Origin: Natronorubrum daqingense
GTDB lineage: Archaea > Halobacteriota > Halobacteria > Halobacteriales > Natrialbaceae
Reading direction: 5' to 3'
NCBI RefSeq assembly: GCF_001971705.1
Contig: NZ_CP019328.1
Location: forward strand, 62,001-126,000
Length of the DNA stretch: 64,000 nucleotides
Part shown: positions 36,333 to 43,119 of the stretch, piece by piece
How the letters are laid out: every line of letters starts with the position of its first letter
Position numbering within the stretch: position 1 is the stretch's first letter
Position numbers and translations under genes: made by a program
Notes under the pieces: generated by a model
Seen by the model: the letters and a program-made list of their open reading frames with translations, nothing else
The model's database searches: none
What the model was told of the DNA's origin: nothing

Positions 36333-37043
36333 TTACCGATTCGGTGGACGGTTATCTGGGGGACGGTTGTCTGGGGGGCGGTTGTCTGGAGGACGGTTGC
36401 CTGGGGGACGGCCGTTGCCGTTCTTGCCGTTGCCGTTCTTGCCGTTTTTGCCGTTGCCGTTCTTGCCGTTGCCGTTCCGGCCGTTGTGTTTGCCGTTCTT
36501 GCCGTTGCCGTTCCGGCCGTTGTGTTTGCCGTTTTTGCCGTTGCCGTTCTTGCCGTTGCCGTTCCGGCCGTTGTGTTTGCCGTTTTTGCCGTTCCGGCCG
36601 TTACCGTTCTTACCGTTCCGTCCTTTGCCGTTCCGGCCGTTGTTCTTGCCGTTCCGGCCGTTGCGCTTGCCGTTCCGGCCGTTGCGCTTGCCGTTCCGTC
36701 CGTTACCGTTCTTACCGTTCCGGCCGTTGCGCTTGCCGTTCCGTCCGTTGCGCTTGCCGTTCCGTCCGTTACCGTTCTTACCGTTCCGGCCGTTGCGCTT
36801 GCCGTTCCGTCCGTTGCGCTTGCCGTTCCGTCCGTTACCGTTCTTACCGTTCCGGCCGTTGTGCTTCCCGTTCCGTCCGTTGTTCTTGCCGTTTTTGCCG
36901 TTTTTACCGTTTCGACCGTTTTTCCCTGCGGAAGCGACGCCACTGAACCCGACGAGACTCAGTCCTGCAACGCCTCCCATTCGTAGCAGACCGCGACGGC
37001 CAGTAGTCGAATCCTCGTCGGCTGGTTTTTGAGTACGTTTCAT
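36333..37043 (-). CDS. Tat-exported, highly basic Asn-Gly-Lys/Arg repeat protein
   Basis: A 236-residue protein. ATG at 37043 begins MKRTQKPADEDSTTGRRGLL, followed by RMGGVAGLSLVGFSGVASAG: a twin-arginine signal with a likely ASA-G cleavage site near residue 40. The mature part is built almost only of Gly, Asn, Lys, Arg and a few His (NGKNGRNGK, NGKRNGRNGK units), then ends in a PPDNR-repeat tail. There is no acidic residue until that tail and no cysteine. DNA units of 66 bp (copies at about 36713-36778 and 36779-36844) encode part of it. Such a polycation is exceptional in a halophile proteome. Regular Gly and Asn suggest a disordered or collagen/polyglycine-II-like chain. Binding to acidic exopolysaccharide, S-layer or DNA is a guess. 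Long opposite-strand frames exist only because the repeat lacks stops; the Tat signal identifies this strand. Confidence 0.85.
   Translation of the reverse strand: MKRTQKPADEDSTTGRRGLLRMGGVAGLSLVGFSGVASAGKNGRNGKNGKNGKNNGRNGKHNGRNGKNGNGRNGKRNGRNGKRNGRNGKNGNGRNGKRNGRNGKRNGRNGKNGNGRNGKRNGRNGKRNGRNGKNNGRNGKGRNGKNGNGRNGKNGKHNGRNGNGKNGNGKNGKHNGRNGNGKNGKHNGRNGNGKNGNGKNGKNGNGKNGNGRPPGNRPPDNRPPDNRPPDNRPPNR
36410..36920. repeat. Low-complexity repeat array coding Asn-Gly-Lys/Arg
   Basis: A plus-strand array of CCGTT-based words (CCGTTCTTG, CCGTTCCGG, CCGTTGCGCTTG). It includes a 66-bp unit duplicated at about 36713-36778 and 36779-36844 with a partial third copy. Mutually similar units point to repeated slippage or unequal crossover, so allele length should differ between isolates. 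Confidence 0.9.
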
Positions 37044-37754
37044 ATTTTTATTCTCCGGGCGCGTACTCGGAAATGGCGTTGCCACTGGTTTAGGATCCCG
37101 GTGCAACGCCCTACTGCTGGGACGTATTATGCCATCTCCGCCTGTACGCTGCCCACTCCTGCACTGATTGCTGGTAGTATTAAACGCGAGTCACCGTTTC
37201 CAAACCAGACGATGATTTGTTCACCCGTACAGTAATGTACGATTCCCAATAGAAAATCTGATTTCATTCTACTCCGCTAACCTGTGCACGCAGAGAGTCT
37301 GAGATGTAAGGACTTGTCTAGTAACTATTCTTATGATCGTCCGACTCACTCGAGTTATACTATAATTTCATCACCAGACGGCAATCACAATCAATACCAA
37401 TAGGTCAAGAGGCATTAAGACCTGGCTTCGTACTATTCGGTACGGTTTCGCCAACTGTAGGTCAAAATATACCGGCCCAGAGGACTACTTGATCAATGTG
37501 TAACCGTGGTTTTCTTCGCGATGGCTGGCGAGTGCATTCCACCCAGCAAACACATCTTATCTTTGAACCGAACTGGGCTTTGTCTCCGGCTGTCTCTGGT
37601 CTTGCCAAAAATGATTGTCGGTGGGCAATGTGATTTCTATCAGACCTACTCGAGACGCACAATGTAGCACTAGTTATACAAAATGTCTTATGATATCGGG
37701 GCTATTCTGGGATTCTCGAGTGCCGCTCGAGTCCGCGTCGCGGAGACGCGAGAA
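37044..37754. other. AT-rich intergenic stretch at island border
   Basis: About 740 bases from the repeat-protein start to the next small gene. GC falls clearly (for example 37250-37420). Short frames such as 37462-37662 carry no family motif. A decayed insertion or gene is possible. Nothing was positively identified. Confidence 0.45.
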
Positions 37755-37760
37755 TTTAAA
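37755..37760 (+). promoter_or_regulatory. TATA box of the first small DDLLIV-family gene
   Basis: TTTAAA at -26 to -31 relative to the ATG at 37786, predicting a leaderless transcript and supporting that start. Confidence 0.65.
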
Positions 37761-37785
37761 TGGGATAGTGGGACCAGATAGAGCG

Positions 37786-37986
37786 ATGCGCCATCCGCAG
37801 GACGATCTCCTGATCGTGCACGCCCTTGTCGAACTCGCTCGTGAGCACAGGGGCACACCGACCGAAGCGCGTGCAAGCGATCTCGCGTACGCCATCGCGA
37901 ATCAACACGGACTCATGCCGGTCGAGGTCCCGAGACAACTCGAGGTGCCACTCGAGGCGCACGGTTGGGAGGAAGACTGCGGCTAA
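37786..37986 (+). CDS. Small DDLLIV-family protein, copy 1 (66 residues)
   Basis: ATG at 37786, placed 26 bp after a TTTAAA box, gives MRHPQDDLLIVHALVELARE followed by a helical region with AYAIANQHGLMPVEVPRQLE and an acidic end. It is a clear paralogue of the protein at 38834: both share HPQDDLLIVxAL, LAxE, IAxQHGL and RQLE. The second half looks like a short helix-turn-helix-like segment, but this is only a guess. No function is known to me. The two copies frame a third small gene, which suggests a small functional cassette or a duplicated antitoxin-like regulator. Confidence 0.7.
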   Translation: MRHPQDDLLIVHALVELAREHRGTPTEARASDLAYAIANQHGLMPVEVPRQLEVPLEAHGWEEDCG

Positions 37987-38484
37987 GGCCAGGGTCCAAT
38001 ACCCGTTCAGCCTCTGCAGTGTGTTTAGTGACAAAAAAGCAACAGAAGTACCGTCCCGCACAGCACCGCTGGGACGGTCATTCCGTCGTGCACATTACTA
38101 GTTAGGTATCAGTCTTATTATGTTGAGCACGAAGTAATTCATGGCGGGGTGGAAAACTGTCTTGACAGTCTGTCCGACCTGGGGCATCCGACGATCCCGC
38201 CAGTGATCGAGCGCCGGTCCAACATCATCGACACCGGCTCTCGATCACTCTCTCCGATTCACCCACCAGCGACTGGGGCGTTGCTGTCGGTTCACTCCCG
38301 ACAGCTTTGTCCCCACCAACTCCTGTTCATCGTCGTCTCTCGTCGTTGTGTCCTGCGTCTGTCTGTCACAAATATGGCGTTAGGGTTTGCGTTGACTTTC
38401 GGCTCGAGGAGTTGTGGGCAAGGCTAATGGTCGTAAACTCTCTGTCCTGTCTTCGAGTGTCTACTTCCTCTCGGTGTCTCACGT
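37987..38484. other. Intergenic stretch between small genes
   Basis: Roughly 500 bases. A frame at 38149-38427 is open but lacks any recognisable motif and has poor third-position GC bias. I see no supported gene, repeat or RNA here. Confidence 0.4.
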
Positions 38485-38766
38485 ATGGGCAAGACAAACC
38501 CCACATACCGAGACACAATCAGACAATTCGAAAACGATTGGTCTCCGTACCATAGAGCACTCCGTCAGCAGTACAAACCTCACTTCGAGCGACTCTTTGA
38601 TCAGGCACGGAACTTCGCGGATGCTGGCGGCATTCAGAATAGCATGGACCCAATGAACACGCACCTCATTTCTATCATGCTCGCCCAGGAGTGCAGGATT
38701 GCTGCGCTCGAGGAAGAGGTGAGTGCATTAGAAGAGGAGGTGAACACGAGTCTAGATCATCGCTAA
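38485..38766 (+). CDS. MGKTNPTYRD-type haloarchaeal protein with coiled-coil tail
   Basis: A 93-residue protein. The N-terminal signature is MGKTNPTYRDTIRQFENDWS, then YHRALRQQYKPHFERLFDQA and a helical C-terminus with two heptads (IAALEEEVSALEEEV). Small proteins with this signature are widespread in haloarchaea (I recall a DUF-type family, name uncertain) and have no assigned function. The tail should mediate dimerisation. It lies in the accessory region between the two DDLLIV paralogues and is transcribed in the same direction. Confidence 0.75.
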   Translation: MGKTNPTYRDTIRQFENDWSPYHRALRQQYKPHFERLFDQARNFADAGGIQNSMDPMNTHLISIMLAQECRIAALEEEVSALEEEVNTSLDHR

Positions 38767-38799
38767 CCACCGTTTTGGGAATAATTGTTCGTCAGAGAG

Positions 38800-38807
38800 T
38801 TTTTTAA
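38800..38807 (+). promoter_or_regulatory. TATA-like element of the second DDLLIV-family gene
   Basis: TTTTTTAA lies 27-34 bp before the ATG at 38834, the same architecture as for copy 1. Confidence 0.5.
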
Positions 38808-38833
38808 TGAAGCCGAGGCCAATCGCGGGTATC

Positions 38834-38995
38834 ATGCACCACCCACAAGATGATTTACTAATTGTCTATGCTCTTACTTTGCTTGCTCAGGAGTATAAGG
38901 TAGCTCAAAAAGAGGAGTGGGCCCTAAGCTTGGCAGACGGGATCGCGGAACAACACGGACTCACAGTTAGTGATGCAATTCGCCAACTCGAATAG
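38834..38995 (+). CDS. Small DDLLIV-family protein, copy 2 (53 residues)
   Basis: ATG at 38834 gives MHHPQDDLLIVYALTLLAQE, then an AEEWALSLADGIAEQHGL-like stretch and an end in DAIRQLE. It is shorter than copy 1 because it lacks the final acidic extension. Conservation of the start and of IAxQHGL over the divergent middle suggests both are functional. The alternative upstream start (38807) would fall inside the TATA element and is rejected. Confidence 0.68.
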   Translation: MHHPQDDLLIVYALTLLAQEYKVAQKEEWALSLADGIAEQHGLTVSDAIRQLE

Positions 38996-39404
38996 ATAGC
39001 GTCACTCAAATGGACAGCGCCAAAAACATCGGCGCACCTTTCCACCTCTGCACGCGGATCGCCAGTTAAAGCACGTAAAACAGAGGTTGATAATGTAACA
39101 AAGTAATGTTGACAAATATGAATTTTGTAGTTATATTAAATTAGTGCGTTACTCTGATGTTGAAATACAAGTTCACATAATATGCTTATTTTTCGCTCAA
39201 GTTACTATTGGTTGAATTGGTAGGCATGCATACCATGTTTTGCAACACCTATTCATCATATATGTGGCATTATAAGGGATCTATTGATACTACAAATGAA
39301 TGTGATATTCCATAATAGTCTACGAAAAGAATAACCAGGTGTGAATTTTTCCATATCTTTCCATCATCCTGGATAATGATGGCCATATGTCCGCCCAAAG
39401 ATTA
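38996..39404. other. Very AT-rich leader of the 39-42 kb operon
   Basis: About 400 bases, the most AT-rich part of the window (for example 39100-39320), with no open frame of note. This composition is typical of acquired DNA in haloarchaea. An RNA or regulatory element could be present, but none is recognisable. Confidence 0.5.
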
Positions 39405-39410
39405 TTTATA
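39405..39410 (+). promoter_or_regulatory. TATA box of the three-gene AT-rich operon
   Basis: TTTATA within ATTATTTATATCAG, 41-46 bp before the ATG at 39451, leaves room for a short leader. No second promoter is obvious downstream, in keeping with a single transcript. Confidence 0.5.
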
Positions 39411-39450
39411 TCAGTGGTGTAACAAAGAATGTGTGAAATACTGACTGAGC

Positions 39451-40161
39451 ATGATTGGATCACCGCCATACGCAGATAACTTCTCACGTATCTCATTAGG
39501 AGACTTAGAAACATCTCAGTTCATTAATTTATTAGAGGAAAACCCATACGAAAAGGGGGAGGCCTATGGATTCTCTATTGAGCAAGTGGAACCTAGTTTG
39601 ATTACAGCATATCTTCTTCTCACAAGGCCGGAAATCCAACAGGTATACGACGAGGATACGCAAGAGGTGACCAAGGAAGAGATTCAAACAGTTGAGATGA
39701 TCCCGTTCAGAGTGGATACTAAATACGGTATCCTGGAAGTCTTCGCTAACAAGGACAGTGTTTCAAACGTCACAAATAAAATTGGTCAGGTGACGAGTTG
39801 GGAAACGACCATTGAGAATACATCTTTCAGCCCCCAACAGGTTCTGAGCACCATTGAGAGCCGATACCGAGTTGAGTTGAATTCTATAAAGATATCTGAC
39901 TACCCAATAACAGACTCAGCAGTCGGTAGCTTTCAGATCGATATTGACGACCAGAACTTGGGGCGTGATTTGTTAAATAAACATTCTGGAGATATCTCCT
40001 ACCTTGGAGCATCCGTGAAAACTGATGGTGAGAGTGTGACTATTGGCATATATAATAGCGGTTCAATCATCGTATATAACAATATTGACAACATGGCAAC
40101 TGTACTTGACGTAATCAAGGAGGGTGTTGTTGGTGGAGGAGAGGAGGTGAATTATGCCTGA
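39451..40161 (+). CDS. Unknown protein, first gene of the AT-rich operon
   Basis: A 236-residue soluble protein beginning MIGSPPYADNFSRISLGDLE. It contains beta-rich segments (IPFRVDTKYGILEVFANKDS) and a C-terminal part with SFQIDIDDQNLGRDLL and VTIGIYNSGSIIVYNNIDN. No signal peptide, membrane helix or catalytic motif was found and no family is recognised. Its codons are AT-rich (many ATA, AGA and TTA), unlike the neighbours, which suggests acquisition. It ends inside the next gene: ATGCCTGA holds both the next start and this stop, an 8-base overlap, so the proteins are made together, probably in stoichiometric amounts. A sensor or inhibitor role within a three-part system is a guess. Confidence 0.75.
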   Translation: MIGSPPYADNFSRISLGDLETSQFINLLEENPYEKGEAYGFSIEQVEPSLITAYLLLTRPEIQQVYDEDTQEVTKEEIQTVEMIPFRVDTKYGILEVFANKDSVSNVTNKIGQVTSWETTIENTSFSPQQVLSTIESRYRVELNSIKISDYPITDSAVGSFQIDIDDQNLGRDLLNKHSGDISYLGASVKTDGESVTIGIYNSGSIIVYNNIDNMATVLDVIKEGVVGGGEEVNYA

Positions 40162-41161
40162 AGACGAGGGTGAACGCGGTCGAGTAGCCAATGAGCGTCT
40201 CGATGCTCTCCTCACCGAGCTGGGATGGACTAAACGAGGGAAATCGAATGTGGATGTTCCCTGCACATCAGGCGTACATGCAAACCGCACTAAGGGTCAT
40301 GGTGTAGACTCTTACTTTACCTACGATAGTCCGTTCCATAACCTAGAGCGTGGTGTCTTTGTTGAATCGAAAATCCGCAAATGGGAAAATATCAACAGAG
40401 ATGATCTACGCGATTCTATGACTCAAACTCTCCAAACAGTCGAGTGTGTTCCTGAGTCTGATAAATTTGAGGAACATTTGAACGGTTATGAGCAAAGAAA
40501 CTACAATGCAGGAGTAGTCGGTATTTGGTCCTCTGATAATTTTCATGAGGCTGACTTCCAAGGATACGTCTCGGACGTGGGTATTCATCGTAAAGAACGA
40601 GGGACGTACGAAATTGCGGTTTTAGGGAATCGAGAGTTAAACAAGTTAGCTCGGTTAGCTAAAGAGTATAACCGGCTAAAGAACGACTACAATAATGATT
40701 CGGATGAGGTGTATTTCTACTATCCCTCGATGGCGGACAAGCCGTTCCCAGATAAGCAAGACTCACTCGCACTGGAGGCCCTATTGTCAGATTTAATATT
40801 TGTTCAAATAAAAAGAGCAAGCGGGTATGATAGAGAAAACACACCCACAGGGTTTGAGCGGGTCAATGTCATATTTTACTTTGGAGACTTTACATTGGAT
40901 TCGCTGGAGGTGGTTTTCAAAGCGTTAGTTGAGTATAATTTACTTGATGTTGAGGAGGTTCTGATATATTATGATAACGAACATCTTGATAGAGGAATTC
41001 AAGATATAGAGTCAGCTAAAGCCCAGTTTGCGAATACAATTATACCAGATAATGGAGAGATTGTAGAAGATAAGGAAATCCCAAAATTCGACTTCGATAC
41101 ATTGCCATCGGTTACGTACGACAACTATACGGAAGGTCTGAGAGGTGATGATAATGCGTAG
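40154..41161 (+). CDS. PD-(D/E)XK-like nuclease, second gene of the AT-rich operon
   Basis: A 335-residue protein. The N-terminal third has the restriction-nuclease pattern: E14 in the first helix, D52 in KGHGVDSYFTYDSP, and E71-x-K73 in GVFVESKIRKW. The helix-turn preceding it (LDALLTELGWTKRG) fits the start of such folds. The arrangement 'KxHGxD...hhhESK' is like that of GapS4a-type anti-phage nucleases as I remember them, but no alignment was done. The C-terminal part (about 170-335) is unrecognised and may sense or bind a partner. It overlaps both neighbours by 8 bases at each end (taking ATG 41154 for the third gene), so the trio is a single functional unit. Base composition is foreign to the rest of the window. 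Confidence 0.72.
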   Translation: MPEDEGERGRVANERLDALLTELGWTKRGKSNVDVPCTSGVHANRTKGHGVDSYFTYDSPFHNLERGVFVESKIRKWENINRDDLRDSMTQTLQTVECVPESDKFEEHLNGYEQRNYNAGVVGIWSSDNFHEADFQGYVSDVGIHRKERGTYEIAVLGNRELNKLARLAKEYNRLKNDYNNDSDEVYFYYPSMADKPFPDKQDSLALEALLSDLIFVQIKRASGYDRENTPTGFERVNVIFYFGDFTLDSLEVVFKALVEYNLLDVEEVLIYYDNEHLDRGIQDIESAKAQFANTIIPDNGEIVEDKEIPKFDFDTLPSVTYDNYTEGLRGDDNA

Positions 41162-42455
41162 AGAAATTGTTGAACAATATCCAACCGTCAAAGACATTGA
41201 AGTGATCTATAAAGACGAAATTGGGCGAATAGACTCCCAAGAGTTCCTTCGTGATGATAAGAAGCTATTCATCCATTCAGGGGACGCAGGGAAGGTTGCT
41301 AATGTGGGGAAGCATCTGCTCTATGACTTAGATAGCGTTCTACTATTGAAAAAGGAGTTAGAAGGAAGAAGTAACAGCGAAAAATCCACTGCATTCGTAG
41401 TAGAGTCTAAAGATTCAATCGATGGGTTAGAGGGGGACCTGAGGGCACTCAAAGAAGACGGGGAGATCATTAACGAAGACTCAAGCCTCCGTATAACAGA
41501 CACTCAACGAGATGAACATAGTATCGATATCCAAGTTAGCTATACTCATCGTAGATCGTCTCAGCGGAACCTAATGGATGCTACAAGTCGGACAACATAC
41601 TTCAAAATCCACGAAACGGAGGAGGATAACATCTACAAGGTAACTCAAAACTTTTTCAATGCAGATGAATTTGATTCAGTAAAAGAATTGTTCGGCTACT
41701 GGGACAGGAAAAGACAGTTTGAAGGTAAGTCTGAAGTAGAACGTGCTGACATCCGCATAGAAGCAATCTCACCACTGGAGGATCGAGTAGACTTCTTTGA
41801 CGAATTTCTAACCTACAATCCAAATAACTGGGATACACGCAACGTTCGTCATTTAGGCGTTCGCCAGAATGGTGACCAAGACGATTCATTCGACAGCATT
41901 GAGTCTGCTGGGGATGAGTTGGAGGAGCAAATTGACAAACACCTCTCCAACATCACTGAGTTAGCACTAACAGGCAAGAGCCTCAGAGATAATCCGATTG
42001 TCGACAAGTGCATTGAGAACGACTTCTTCTTTGACTCTGCAAAGATCTATTGCGAAAACGTCGAAAGAGCCCGTGGAGTCGAAATATCAGTCAAGTTCAA
42101 GCAAAAAGGAAGAAACGCGTTTGATTTGTCTATCAATAAGGAGTACGAATTAGTTGATGGGGACCGCAAACGAGAACCCTTTAGCCCCAATTTCCGAGAC
42201 CAGACGCGGAGGGAGTTCCGAGATGCGGTTGTAGACCTATATGGGGAATTCAAGGACATGCCTGATCTTGTCAAAGAACGTGGTGACTCCTTTGACTTCA
42301 CTGATCTCCCGGGAATTGGCCCGACTATCGCTGAGAACCTCGAAAGTGAATACGAATCAGTATATGAACTAATGGATGCGGAAGTTGACAATCTAATCGA
42401 AATAGATGGCATTGGAGAATCCACAGCAGAACGAATACTTGCTACTGAAGTTTGA
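41154..42455 (+). CDS. Helix-hairpin-helix protein, third gene of the AT-rich operon
   Basis: A 433-residue protein from ATG 41154 (MRREIVEQYPTVKDIEVIYK). GTG 41145 and ATG 41148 are alternatives, all overlapping the nuclease stop. The body (1-375) is predicted alpha/beta with no family recognised. It has many charged residues and a segment DQTRREFRDAVVDLYGEF. The last 52 residues form a pair of helix-hairpin-helix motifs (FTDLPGIGPTIAENL and IEIDGIGESTAERIL), which bind DNA backbone without sequence specificity. The protein probably delivers the complex to DNA or holds DNA for the nuclease. An 8-bp-arm inverted repeat follows at 42497-42525. Confidence 0.75.
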   Translation: MRREIVEQYPTVKDIEVIYKDEIGRIDSQEFLRDDKKLFIHSGDAGKVANVGKHLLYDLDSVLLLKKELEGRSNSEKSTAFVVESKDSIDGLEGDLRALKEDGEIINEDSSLRITDTQRDEHSIDIQVSYTHRRSSQRNLMDATSRTTYFKIHETEEDNIYKVTQNFFNADEFDSVKELFGYWDRKRQFEGKSEVERADIRIEAISPLEDRVDFFDEFLTYNPNNWDTRNVRHLGVRQNGDQDDSFDSIESAGDELEEQIDKHLSNITELALTGKSLRDNPIVDKCIENDFFFDSAKIYCENVERARGVEISVKFKQKGRNAFDLSINKEYELVDGDRKREPFSPNFRDQTRREFRDAVVDLYGEFKDMPDLVKERGDSFDFTDLPGIGPTIAENLESEYESVYELMDAEVDNLIEIDGIGESTAERILATEV

Positions 42456-42496
42456 GCCCCTGCGGTCACACGTCGGCAAACTCCGTTACCCGAATA

Positions 42497-42525
42497 TGCA
42501 CACGAAACCGGTAACGCCGTGTGCA
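42497..42525. terminator. Inverted repeat after the AT-rich operon
   Basis: Arms TGCACACG (42497-42504) and CGTGTGCA (42518-42525) are perfect with a 13-base loop, beginning 42 bp after the operon stop. It could end or stabilise the transcript, or be a protein-binding palindrome. No T-run follows. Confidence 0.5.
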
Positions 42526-42921
42526 CAGTGATGGGTCGGTGGGAGAGCCGCCGATACGACCGTGAGCACGACGTATCCTTTACAAAACTCCACTCGAGCC
42601 TCACTCAGCGCTGCAAAATATGCCTCATGTGTTCACGAACCCGATCTGAAGGCATAGAGTAGCGGATGAAACACTGAGTCTCACGAACTCGAGTCCACTG
42701 GCCTCGAAAACCACCGGCGTCAGAAGCACCCGACGAACGGTCCCAGAGCCGCGGAGATCCTGCCTTTCAACAAAAACTCGCCTACACTAATTTAACCAAA
42801 GCAAGAAATTATTTGTAACTAGAACACAAACACACACTCGGCCCACCCCCACCGGATCGAAAGGTCCGACGTGTAGCACCACGCCGGGGGTCGGGGCTAC
42901 CTCCGAAAGAGGAATCCGACC
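42526..42921. other. Intergenic stretch before the four-gene operon
   Basis: Normal GC returns here. No supported frame. The region around 42780-42840 is AT-rich (AATTTAACCAAAGCAAGAAA) and may hold a promoter or the island edge. Confidence 0.45.
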
Positions 42922-43119
42922 ATGCGAAACCAATACTCGAGGGGTCAAAGAGATTACCCCATAGACGACGGTACCGATAGCCAACCGGATGGCCGCGACG
43001 ACCCGCCCCGTCCGGCCATCCTCCCCGACGACGAGCGCGTCGTCCTCCCGTTTTTCGACCGTCCGAACACGTCTGAGGACCCACCCCACGCCACCCCATC
43101 CCGAGGTGACCGCCCGTGA
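42922..43119 (+). CDS. Small disordered protein, first gene of GTGA-linked operon
   Basis: A 65-residue Pro/Asp/Arg-rich protein (MRNQYSRGQRDYPIDDGTDS) with no hydrophobic core, probably disordered. The only motif is a central ERVVLPFFDRP. Its TGA overlaps the GTG of the next gene (GTGA at 43116-43119). No function is known. It may belong to a conserved haloarchaeal plasmid- or provirus-derived block with the next three genes. Confidence 0.6.
   Translation: MRNQYSRGQRDYPIDDGTDSQPDGRDDPPRPAILPDDERVVLPFFDRPNTSEDPPHATPSRGDRP

What the first reader, a model, noticed from the sequence alone, without database searches (positions are those of the whole stretch)
39451..42455. AT-rich three-gene operon with a PD-(D/E)XK-like nuclease and a helix-hairpin-helix partner: candidate new defence system
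Three genes overlap by 8 bases each, use AT-rich codons unlike both flanks, and follow the most AT-rich non-coding leader of the window. The middle protein has E14, D52 and E71-x-K73 in nuclease order (KGHGVDSYFTY...ESK). The third ends in a double helix-hairpin-helix. The first is unrecognised. Strict co-translation plus nuclease plus DNA-binding partner plus foreign composition is the usual outline of an anti-phage or element-exclusion module. The nuclease part recalls GapS4a-type proteins from memory, but the three-gene arrangement, with HhH and an unknown first component, is one I do not know.
Basis: partly seen in the sequence, partly recalled or inferred. Interest (0 to 1): 0.87.

Follow-up and report, generated by a model that had tools for sequence, protein, structure and literature searches.

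The report
Archaeal relative of 3HP antiphage system
A salt-loving archaeon carries, on a plasmid, a distant version of a three-gene antivirus system known from E. coli prophages; it shows that the nuclease part is shared with a second antiphage system and that the archaeal version gained a DNA-binding tail, so it is a new variant of a known kind of defence rather than a new system.

Summary
In detail: three AT-rich genes (A 39451-40161, B 40154-41161, C 41154-42455), 8-base overlaps, on a 202-kb secondary replicon. B is a PD-(D/E)XK nuclease: D52, E/D71 and K73 are conserved in 22 of 22 homologues, and its predicted fold matches FokI, Can2, HamA and Shedu nucleases; E14 is not conserved. C ends in an (HhH)2 domain found only in haloarchaeal copies. 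The arrangement is not unknown. All three proteins are full-length homologues of the PADLOC proteins Hp1, Hp2 and Hp3, the three-gene system (DefenseFinder Rst_3HP) of P2-like prophages that protects E. coli against phage P1. Profile-profile probabilities are 99.4, 98.4 and 98.7%, with negative controls at 0.1-0.2%. B and C also belong to the families of GapS4a and GapS4b, which links 3HP with GAPS4. Haloarchaea, some Firmicutes and a gut phage contig have the order A-B-C, Proteobacteria B-C-A. The genes stay together and are under purifying selection. One same-genus plasmid has this segment replaced by about 250 bp; two others carry different AT-rich genes there. Most likely: a divergent archaeal 3HP-type antiviral complex with B as the nuclease effector. 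Antiviral activity in archaea is untested.

The parts
39005..39450 (+). AT-rich leader (GC 0.36); TATA-like TTATTTATA at about 39402-39410, about 40 nt before the first ATG (promoter role inferred)
39451..40161 (+). gene A, 236 aa, Hp3-like third component; no known domain
   Evidence: PHROG_5850 E 3.7e-8; haloarchaeal profile versus proteobacterial Hp3 profile 98.7%, E 4.5e-16
40137..40151 (+). Shine-Dalgarno-like AGGAGAGGAGGTGAA before the start of B
40154..41161 (+). gene B, 335 aa, Hp1/GapS4a-like PD-(D/E)XK nuclease
   Evidence: NCBIfam NF047933 E 4.6e-16; PADLOC Hp1 E 3.1e-6; hhalign 99.4%; AF2 model pLDDT 81.5 with nuclease-fold matches
40307..40309 (+). codon of D52, catalytic Asp, 22/22 conserved
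40364..40372 (+). codons of E71-S72-K73, (D/E)xK motif; K73 22/22, acidic 71 22/22
41140..41150 (+). Shine-Dalgarno-like GAGAGGTGATG before the start of C
41154..42455 (+). gene C, 433 aa, Hp2/GapS4b-like component with C-terminal HhH
   Evidence: hhalign versus proteobacterial Hp2 alignment 98.4%, E 6.7e-15 over 340 columns
42297..42440 (+). (HhH)2 domain of C (residues 382-429), haloarchaea-specific addition
   Evidence: Pfam HHH_5 E 1.9e-11; structure matches to UvrC, RadA, XPF and Hef HhH; absent in L009, L011, L015, L031 and proteobacterial copies
37720..42934 (.). accessory segment: replaced by about 250 bp in the same-genus plasmid of G352, other AT-rich genes at this place in G790 and G116

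Best explanation
The operon is a divergent haloarchaeal version of the 3HP anti-phage system (gene order Hp3-Hp1-Hp2), acquired with a mobile AT-rich segment on a plasmid. The three products are made together and most likely form one complex. C (Hp2/GapS4b-like), with its haloarchaea-specific HhH tail, and probably A (Hp3-like) hold or sense DNA of an incoming virus or plasmid. That licenses B, a PD-(D/E)XK enzyme, to cut DNA, so that the invader, or the infected cell with it, is stopped. Shown here: homology of all three to 3HP, the nuclease fold and conserved catalytic residues of B, the HhH domain, conserved linkage, purifying selection, and the mobile variable location. Inferred: complex formation, sensing by A and C, DNA rather than RNA as substrate, and antiviral activity in the archaeon. 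Direct cleavage of the invader and abortive self-damage cannot be told apart.
For: B: GapS4a model E 4.6e-16, PADLOC Hp1 E 3.1e-6, hhalign to proteobacterial Hp1 99.4%, E 9.6e-22. C: hhalign to Hp2 98.4%, E 6.7e-15. A: hhalign to Hp3 98.7%, E 4.5e-16. Mismatched pairs give 0.1-0.2%. The E. coli trio L027 matches PADLOC Hp1, Hp2 and Hp3 at 792, 820 and 520 bits and lies between portal gpQ and replication gpA of a P2-like phage-plasmid, the hotspot where Rousset et al. tested a three-gene system with no clear domain that protects against P1 (PMC9122126). Nuclease fold: VIA matches AF1548 Z 10.0, FokI 8.5, AspBHI 8.4, Can2 8.0, HamA 7.9, SduA 7.7. D52, (E/D)71 and K73 in 22/22. The trio is complete in all 9 B-positive haloarchaeal genomes of 391 and in every one of 23 prophage contigs that is not cut off. 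Mirror-tree r 0.94-0.97; dN/dS 0.04-0.11. Empty or variable site; integrases or a resolvase nearby in L010, L012, L062, L064.
Against: No direct PADLOC hit for A or C, and B is far below the GapS4a cut-off (58.9 against 270 bits), so divergence is large and function could have shifted. Gene order differs from the tested E. coli system. In three Halobacterium-type genomes an A homologue stands alone in a GC-rich chromosomal setting, so A can have another role. No antiviral test exists for any archaeal copy, and the mechanism of 3HP itself was not found in the papers held. The C model is poor (pLDDT 60.7) and A was not modelled.
Confidence: 0.82

Rival explanations
1. Plasmid-encoded exclusion or addiction module: B is a toxin-like nuclease held in check by A or C, which keeps the plasmid or excludes rival plasmids rather than viruses.
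For: Many copies are on plasmids, the genes are tightly co-translated, and the B nuclease could be toxic.
Against: The E. coli homologue protects against phage P1 (PMC9122126) and sits in a phage defence hotspot; there are three conserved components rather than a two-gene pair. P1 itself lives as a plasmid, so the two readings overlap.
Confidence: 0.15
2. It is a GAPS4 system proper, with A an unrelated neighbour.
For: B matches GapS4a; C-family proteins match GapS4b in G772 (E 1.3e-10), E. coli (2.2e-5) and Azospirillum (1.6e-3).
Against: Scores are far below both curated cut-offs; A is conserved with B and C across archaea, Firmicutes, Proteobacteria and phages, changes its position in the operon yet stays, and co-evolves with them.
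Confidence: 0.05
3. DNA repair or recombination module (HhH protein plus structure-specific nuclease) with no defence role.
For: The HhH of C resembles those of Hef/XPF, UvrC and RadA; PD-(D/E)XK enzymes are common in repair.
Against: Patchy presence (9 of 391 haloarchaeal genomes), foreign composition, prophage and plasmid location, an HhH absent from most family members, and a homologue with tested anti-phage activity.
Confidence: 0.03
4. The haloarchaeal clade has changed purpose: same proteins, but a new trigger or target set by the HhH tail, for example forked or branched replicating DNA. This is compatible with the best explanation and would be a refinement of it.
For: The HhH is present in 8 of 9 complete haloarchaeal C proteins aligned here and in no bacterial copy.
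Against: No functional data; the L009 copy lacks the HhH and keeps the trio.
Confidence: 0.3

Closest known systems
Rst_3HP, PADLOC Hp1-Hp2-Hp3 (E. coli P2-like prophage hotspot; Rousset et al. 2022, PMC9122126)
   Same: All three proteins are full-length homologues, in one co-directional compact operon, on mobile elements; Hp1 carries the same D...(D/E)xK site.
   Different: Order A-B-C (Hp3-Hp1-Hp2) instead of Hp1-Hp2-Hp3; C has an (HhH)2 tail; only about 13-18% identity to the E. coli-type proteins; an archaeal host; existing PADLOC models detect only B, weakly.
GAPS4 (NCBIfam GapS4a NF047933, GapS4b NF047934)
   Same: B is homologous to GapS4a over residues 13-294; the C family is homologous to GapS4b; nuclease gene then partner gene.
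   Different: Scores far below the subfamily cut-offs; a conserved third gene A with no NCBIfam counterpart. Whether GAPS4 loci have an A-like gene could not be checked.
PD-(D/E)XK nucleases of other defence systems (Hachiman HamA, Shedu SduA, Can2, FokI)
   Same: Fold and catalytic motif of the N-terminal half of B.
   Different: No sequence similarity found; no ATPase, CARF or recognition domain in the operon.
(HhH)2 domains of Hef/XPF, UvrC, RadA
   Same: C-terminal 55 residues of C.
   Different: The rest of C is unrelated to these repair proteins by sequence.

Membership tests
Rst_3HP / PADLOC Hp1-Hp2-Hp3 | Homologues of all three proteins next to each other in one operon | tested here: met
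   hhalign 99.4/98.4/98.7% for B/C/A against proteobacterial alignments, negative controls 0.1-0.2%; adjacency
Rst_3HP / PADLOC Hp1-Hp2-Hp3 | Direct detection of each protein by the existing PADLOC models | tested here: not met
   Only B: Hp1, E 3.1e-6; no direct Hp2 or Hp3 hit. It is therefore filed as a divergent variant, not as a canonical member
Rst_3HP / PADLOC Hp1-Hp2-Hp3 | Anti-phage activity | not testable with these tools
   Reported for the E. coli system against P1 (PMC9122126); no data for archaeal copies
GAPS4 | GapS4a and GapS4b above the curated NCBIfam cut-offs | tested here: not met
   B 58.9 bits against 270; C of the window has no hit; best relative in G772 40.7 bits against 300
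GAPS4 | Two-gene system without a third component (definition from memory) | tested here: not met
   A is conserved with B and C in archaea, Firmicutes, Proteobacteria and phages. Genuine GAPS4 loci could not be fetched for comparison
PD-(D/E)XK nuclease superfamily | D...(D/E)xK catalytic residues on adjacent strands | tested here: met
   D52, E/D71 and K73 in 22/22; strands 53-59 and 64-74 in the model
PD-(D/E)XK nuclease superfamily | Restriction-endonuclease-like fold | tested here: met
   Model pLDDT 81.5, pTM 0.85; AF1548 Z 10.0, rmsd 2.5, 118 aligned; FokI Z 8.5, rmsd 3.4, 150 aligned. Foldseek alone was weak, with HamA at E 3.1e-3 and probability 0.97
(HhH)2 DNA-binding domain | Two HhH motifs above the Pfam cut-off | tested here: met
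   HHH_5 44.7 bits against cut-off 27

The most novel reading that the evidence does not exclude
3HP and GAPS4 are two ends of one old superfamily of nuclease-based immune complexes found in archaea, Firmicutes, Proteobacteria and phages. The archaeal branch has turned it into a system triggered by branched or otherwise structured invader DNA by adding an HhH tail to the sensor subunit, and A can detach and be domesticated in the chromosome, as in Halobacterium-type genomes.
Probability: 0.35. Interest if true: 0.7.

Novelty: new variant of a known kind. Interest (0 to 1): 0.52.

Why it matters
It assigns a nuclease fold and catalytic residues to 3HP, whose three proteins were described as having no clear predicted domain, joins 3HP with GAPS4, and extends both to archaea, where existing defence models detect only one of the three proteins, weakly. 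The family can be tested at once with point mutants in either E. coli or a haloarchaeon, and the HhH tail gives a handle on what the sensor subunit touches.

Tried and rejected
New, unknown system: rejected once the E. coli trio matched PADLOC Hp1-3 and all three window proteins aligned to it. E14 as a catalytic residue: rejected. HhH as a defining component: rejected (absent in bacterial copies, L009, L011). Inverted repeat 39121-39146 / 42785-42810 as element ends: 11 perfect bases in 5.7 kb of AT-rich DNA is about what chance gives, not pursued. Sigma-70 promoter hits: 10 against 7.4 expected, and the wrong promoter type for archaea. Sequence searches of the PDB with A and B gave nothing useful, C only HhH. 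The C model was too weak for a fold assignment outside the HhH; Foldseek CENP-N (E 2.6e-3) and VIA KA1/PMM-like matches at residues 75-199 (Z about 8) are not trusted. The C-terminal half of B (162-321) resembling the RPB5 N-terminal domain (Z 8.8) hints at a second, inactive nuclease-like domain but is not claimed. Viral-structure library: no match with E at or below 0.001. Pfam scan of 25 A-family proteins: nothing. The search of viral contigs with the haloarchaeal B alignment found none. True GAPS4 loci could not be reached. Searches of the paper library for GAPS4 and for a 3HP mechanism found no paper on either mechanism.

Full report
What is there. The window lies at 62001-126000 of a 202,531-bp contig beside a 3.4-Mb main contig, so the operon is on a secondary replicon. 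Three + strand genes, A (39451-40161), B (40154-41161) and C (41154-42455), overlap by 8 bases at both joints, with Shine-Dalgarno-like sequences inside the preceding gene. The operon GC is 0.431 against 0.598 for the window, and the leader holds the lowest-GC 400 bp of the window. The composition is a property of the system and not of this host alone: the trio has GC 0.39-0.51 in the other haloarchaeal loci inspected, several of which lie in much GC-richer surroundings.

First identification. B matches NCBIfam GapS4a at E 4.6e-16, but with 58.9 bits against a cut-off of 270, PADLOC Hp1 at 3.1e-6 and PHROG_7059 at 3.5e-20; A matches PHROG_5850 at 3.7e-8. C has only its HhH in Pfam.

The trio is conserved. 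B occurs in 9 of 391 haloarchaeal genomes, and in every one A precedes it and C follows it. The same order A-B-C is found in Petroclostridium sp. X23 (L015), in a genome of the same phylum (G772, L031) and in an unclassified gut phage contig (L011). A second order, B-C-A, is found on plasmids of Pseudomonas, Azospirillum, Aliarcobacter, Vibrio, Enterobacter and Klebsiella and on an E. coli phage-plasmid, and in IMG/VR prophage contigs: 21 of 23 show all three genes (one of them with B shortened by the contig end), and the other two are cut off at the contig end. Trees of the three proteins agree (pairwise distance correlation 0.94-0.97, no permutation of 1000 as high; shared ancestry of hosts is not removed by this test), and close pairs have dN/dS 0.04-0.11.

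Which system. The E. coli trio matches PADLOC Hp1, Hp2 and Hp3 at 792, 820 and 520 bits. It lies between the portal gene (gpQ) and the replication endonuclease gene (gpA) of a P2-like element, next to a DinI gene. Rousset et al. describe the gpA-gpQ hotspot of P2-like phages, and a cloned system of three genes with no clear predicted domain that protects against P1 (PMC9122126). DefenseFinder lists Rst_3HP as mostly prophage-borne (PMC9090908). That PADLOC Hp1-3 are this Rst_3HP is an inference from names, location and gene number. Alignments that share no sequence, haloarchaeal plus one gut phage contig on one side and proteobacterial on the other, match over their full length: B 99.4% (E 9.6e-22), C 98.4% (E 6.7e-15), A 98.7% (E 4.5e-16). 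Mismatched pairs give 0.1-0.2%.

Link to GAPS4. C-family members match GapS4b (G772 1.3e-10, E. coli 2.2e-5, Azospirillum 1.6e-3), and B-family members match GapS4a in haloarchaea, Petroclostridium, G772 and Vibrio. So 3HP and GAPS4 share two components. I found no statement of this in the papers held. Whether GAPS4 loci lack A could not be tested.

The nuclease. Across 22 B proteins D52 and K73 never vary, position 71 is E (12) or D (10), and W25 and D128 never vary; E14 is E in only 3. The AlphaFold model (pLDDT 81.5, pTM 0.85) aligns by VIA to AF1548 (Z 10.0), FokI (8.5), AspBHI (8.4), PaqCI, XisH, Can2, HamA, EndoMS and SduA, which are nucleases or (from general knowledge of the folds) nuclease-fold proteins. 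Foldseek alone gave weak E-values (HamA 3.1e-3). One RefSeq E. coli Hp1 locus is also annotated with a PD-(D/E)XK nuclease domain protein.

The HhH. It is present in eight of the nine complete haloarchaeal C proteins aligned, and absent from L009, the phage contig, the Firmicutes and the proteobacterial copies. It is therefore best read as a later addition, and it suggests that C is the subunit that touches DNA.

Location. In same-genus genome G352 the flanks are 82-84% identical, but the segment 37720-42934 is replaced by about 250 bp. In G790 and G116 the same place holds other AT-rich genes, a pentapeptide-repeat protein with a two-gene operon and two unrelated genes respectively. This is a variable site on haloarchaeal plasmids. 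Elsewhere the trio is near integrases (L010, L062, L064) or a resolvase (L012).

Mechanism, with its steps marked. Shown: homology, fold, catalytic residues, linkage, mobile setting. Inferred: the three proteins act as a complex; C and A sense or hold invader DNA; B cuts DNA. Not decided: whether the cut is limited to the invader. The E. coli activity against P1 is published; nothing is known for archaea.

Verdict. This is a divergent archaeal variant of 3HP, worth attention because it gives 3HP a nuclease, joins it to GAPS4 and shows an archaeal domain addition.

Noticed in passing
L093 7697-8410 (-), L094 7205-7918 (+), L095 7346-8068 (-): Stand-alone homologues of A on GC-rich chromosomal DNA in three genomes of one haloarchaeal family (G001, G007, G376), without B or C; in G001 and G007 next to an eIF1/SUI1-like gene and a NadE-like gene (recognised by eye). 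They look like domesticated Hp3; role unknown.
   Followed up: partly
L078 8911-12707 and L080 9765-12214: At the plasmid site corresponding to the window operon, two same-genus genomes carry other AT-rich genes: a pentapeptide-repeat protein with a 359/382-aa two-gene operon, and 287-aa and 335-aa genes, all without PADLOC hits. Possible further unknown defence genes in a plasmid hotspot.
   Followed up: partly
B residues 162-321 (window 40637-41116): The C-terminal half of B resembles the N-terminal domain of RNA polymerase subunit RPB5 (Z 8.8, 118 residues), perhaps a second, inactive nuclease-like domain.
   Followed up: partly
L014 99-5809 and 14337-20695: Around the Halocatena trio lie a UvrD-type helicase fused to a PD-(D/E)XK domain (with a 653-aa gene before it) and a gene set with a Rad50/SMC-like ATPase: a possible defence island.
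   Followed up: no
36333-37106 (-): An ORF of Asn-Gly-Arg/Lys repeats with an apparent signal region, 257 aa; low-complexity, possibly a secreted or cell-surface protein.
   Followed up: no
37889-37915 and 38937-38963: Two diverged copies of a small ORF end (27 nt, 85% identical) upstream of the operon, in ORFs 37615-37986 and 38807-38995 (both contain 'HPQDDLLIV'): a duplicated small gene, one copy degraded or extended.
   Followed up: no
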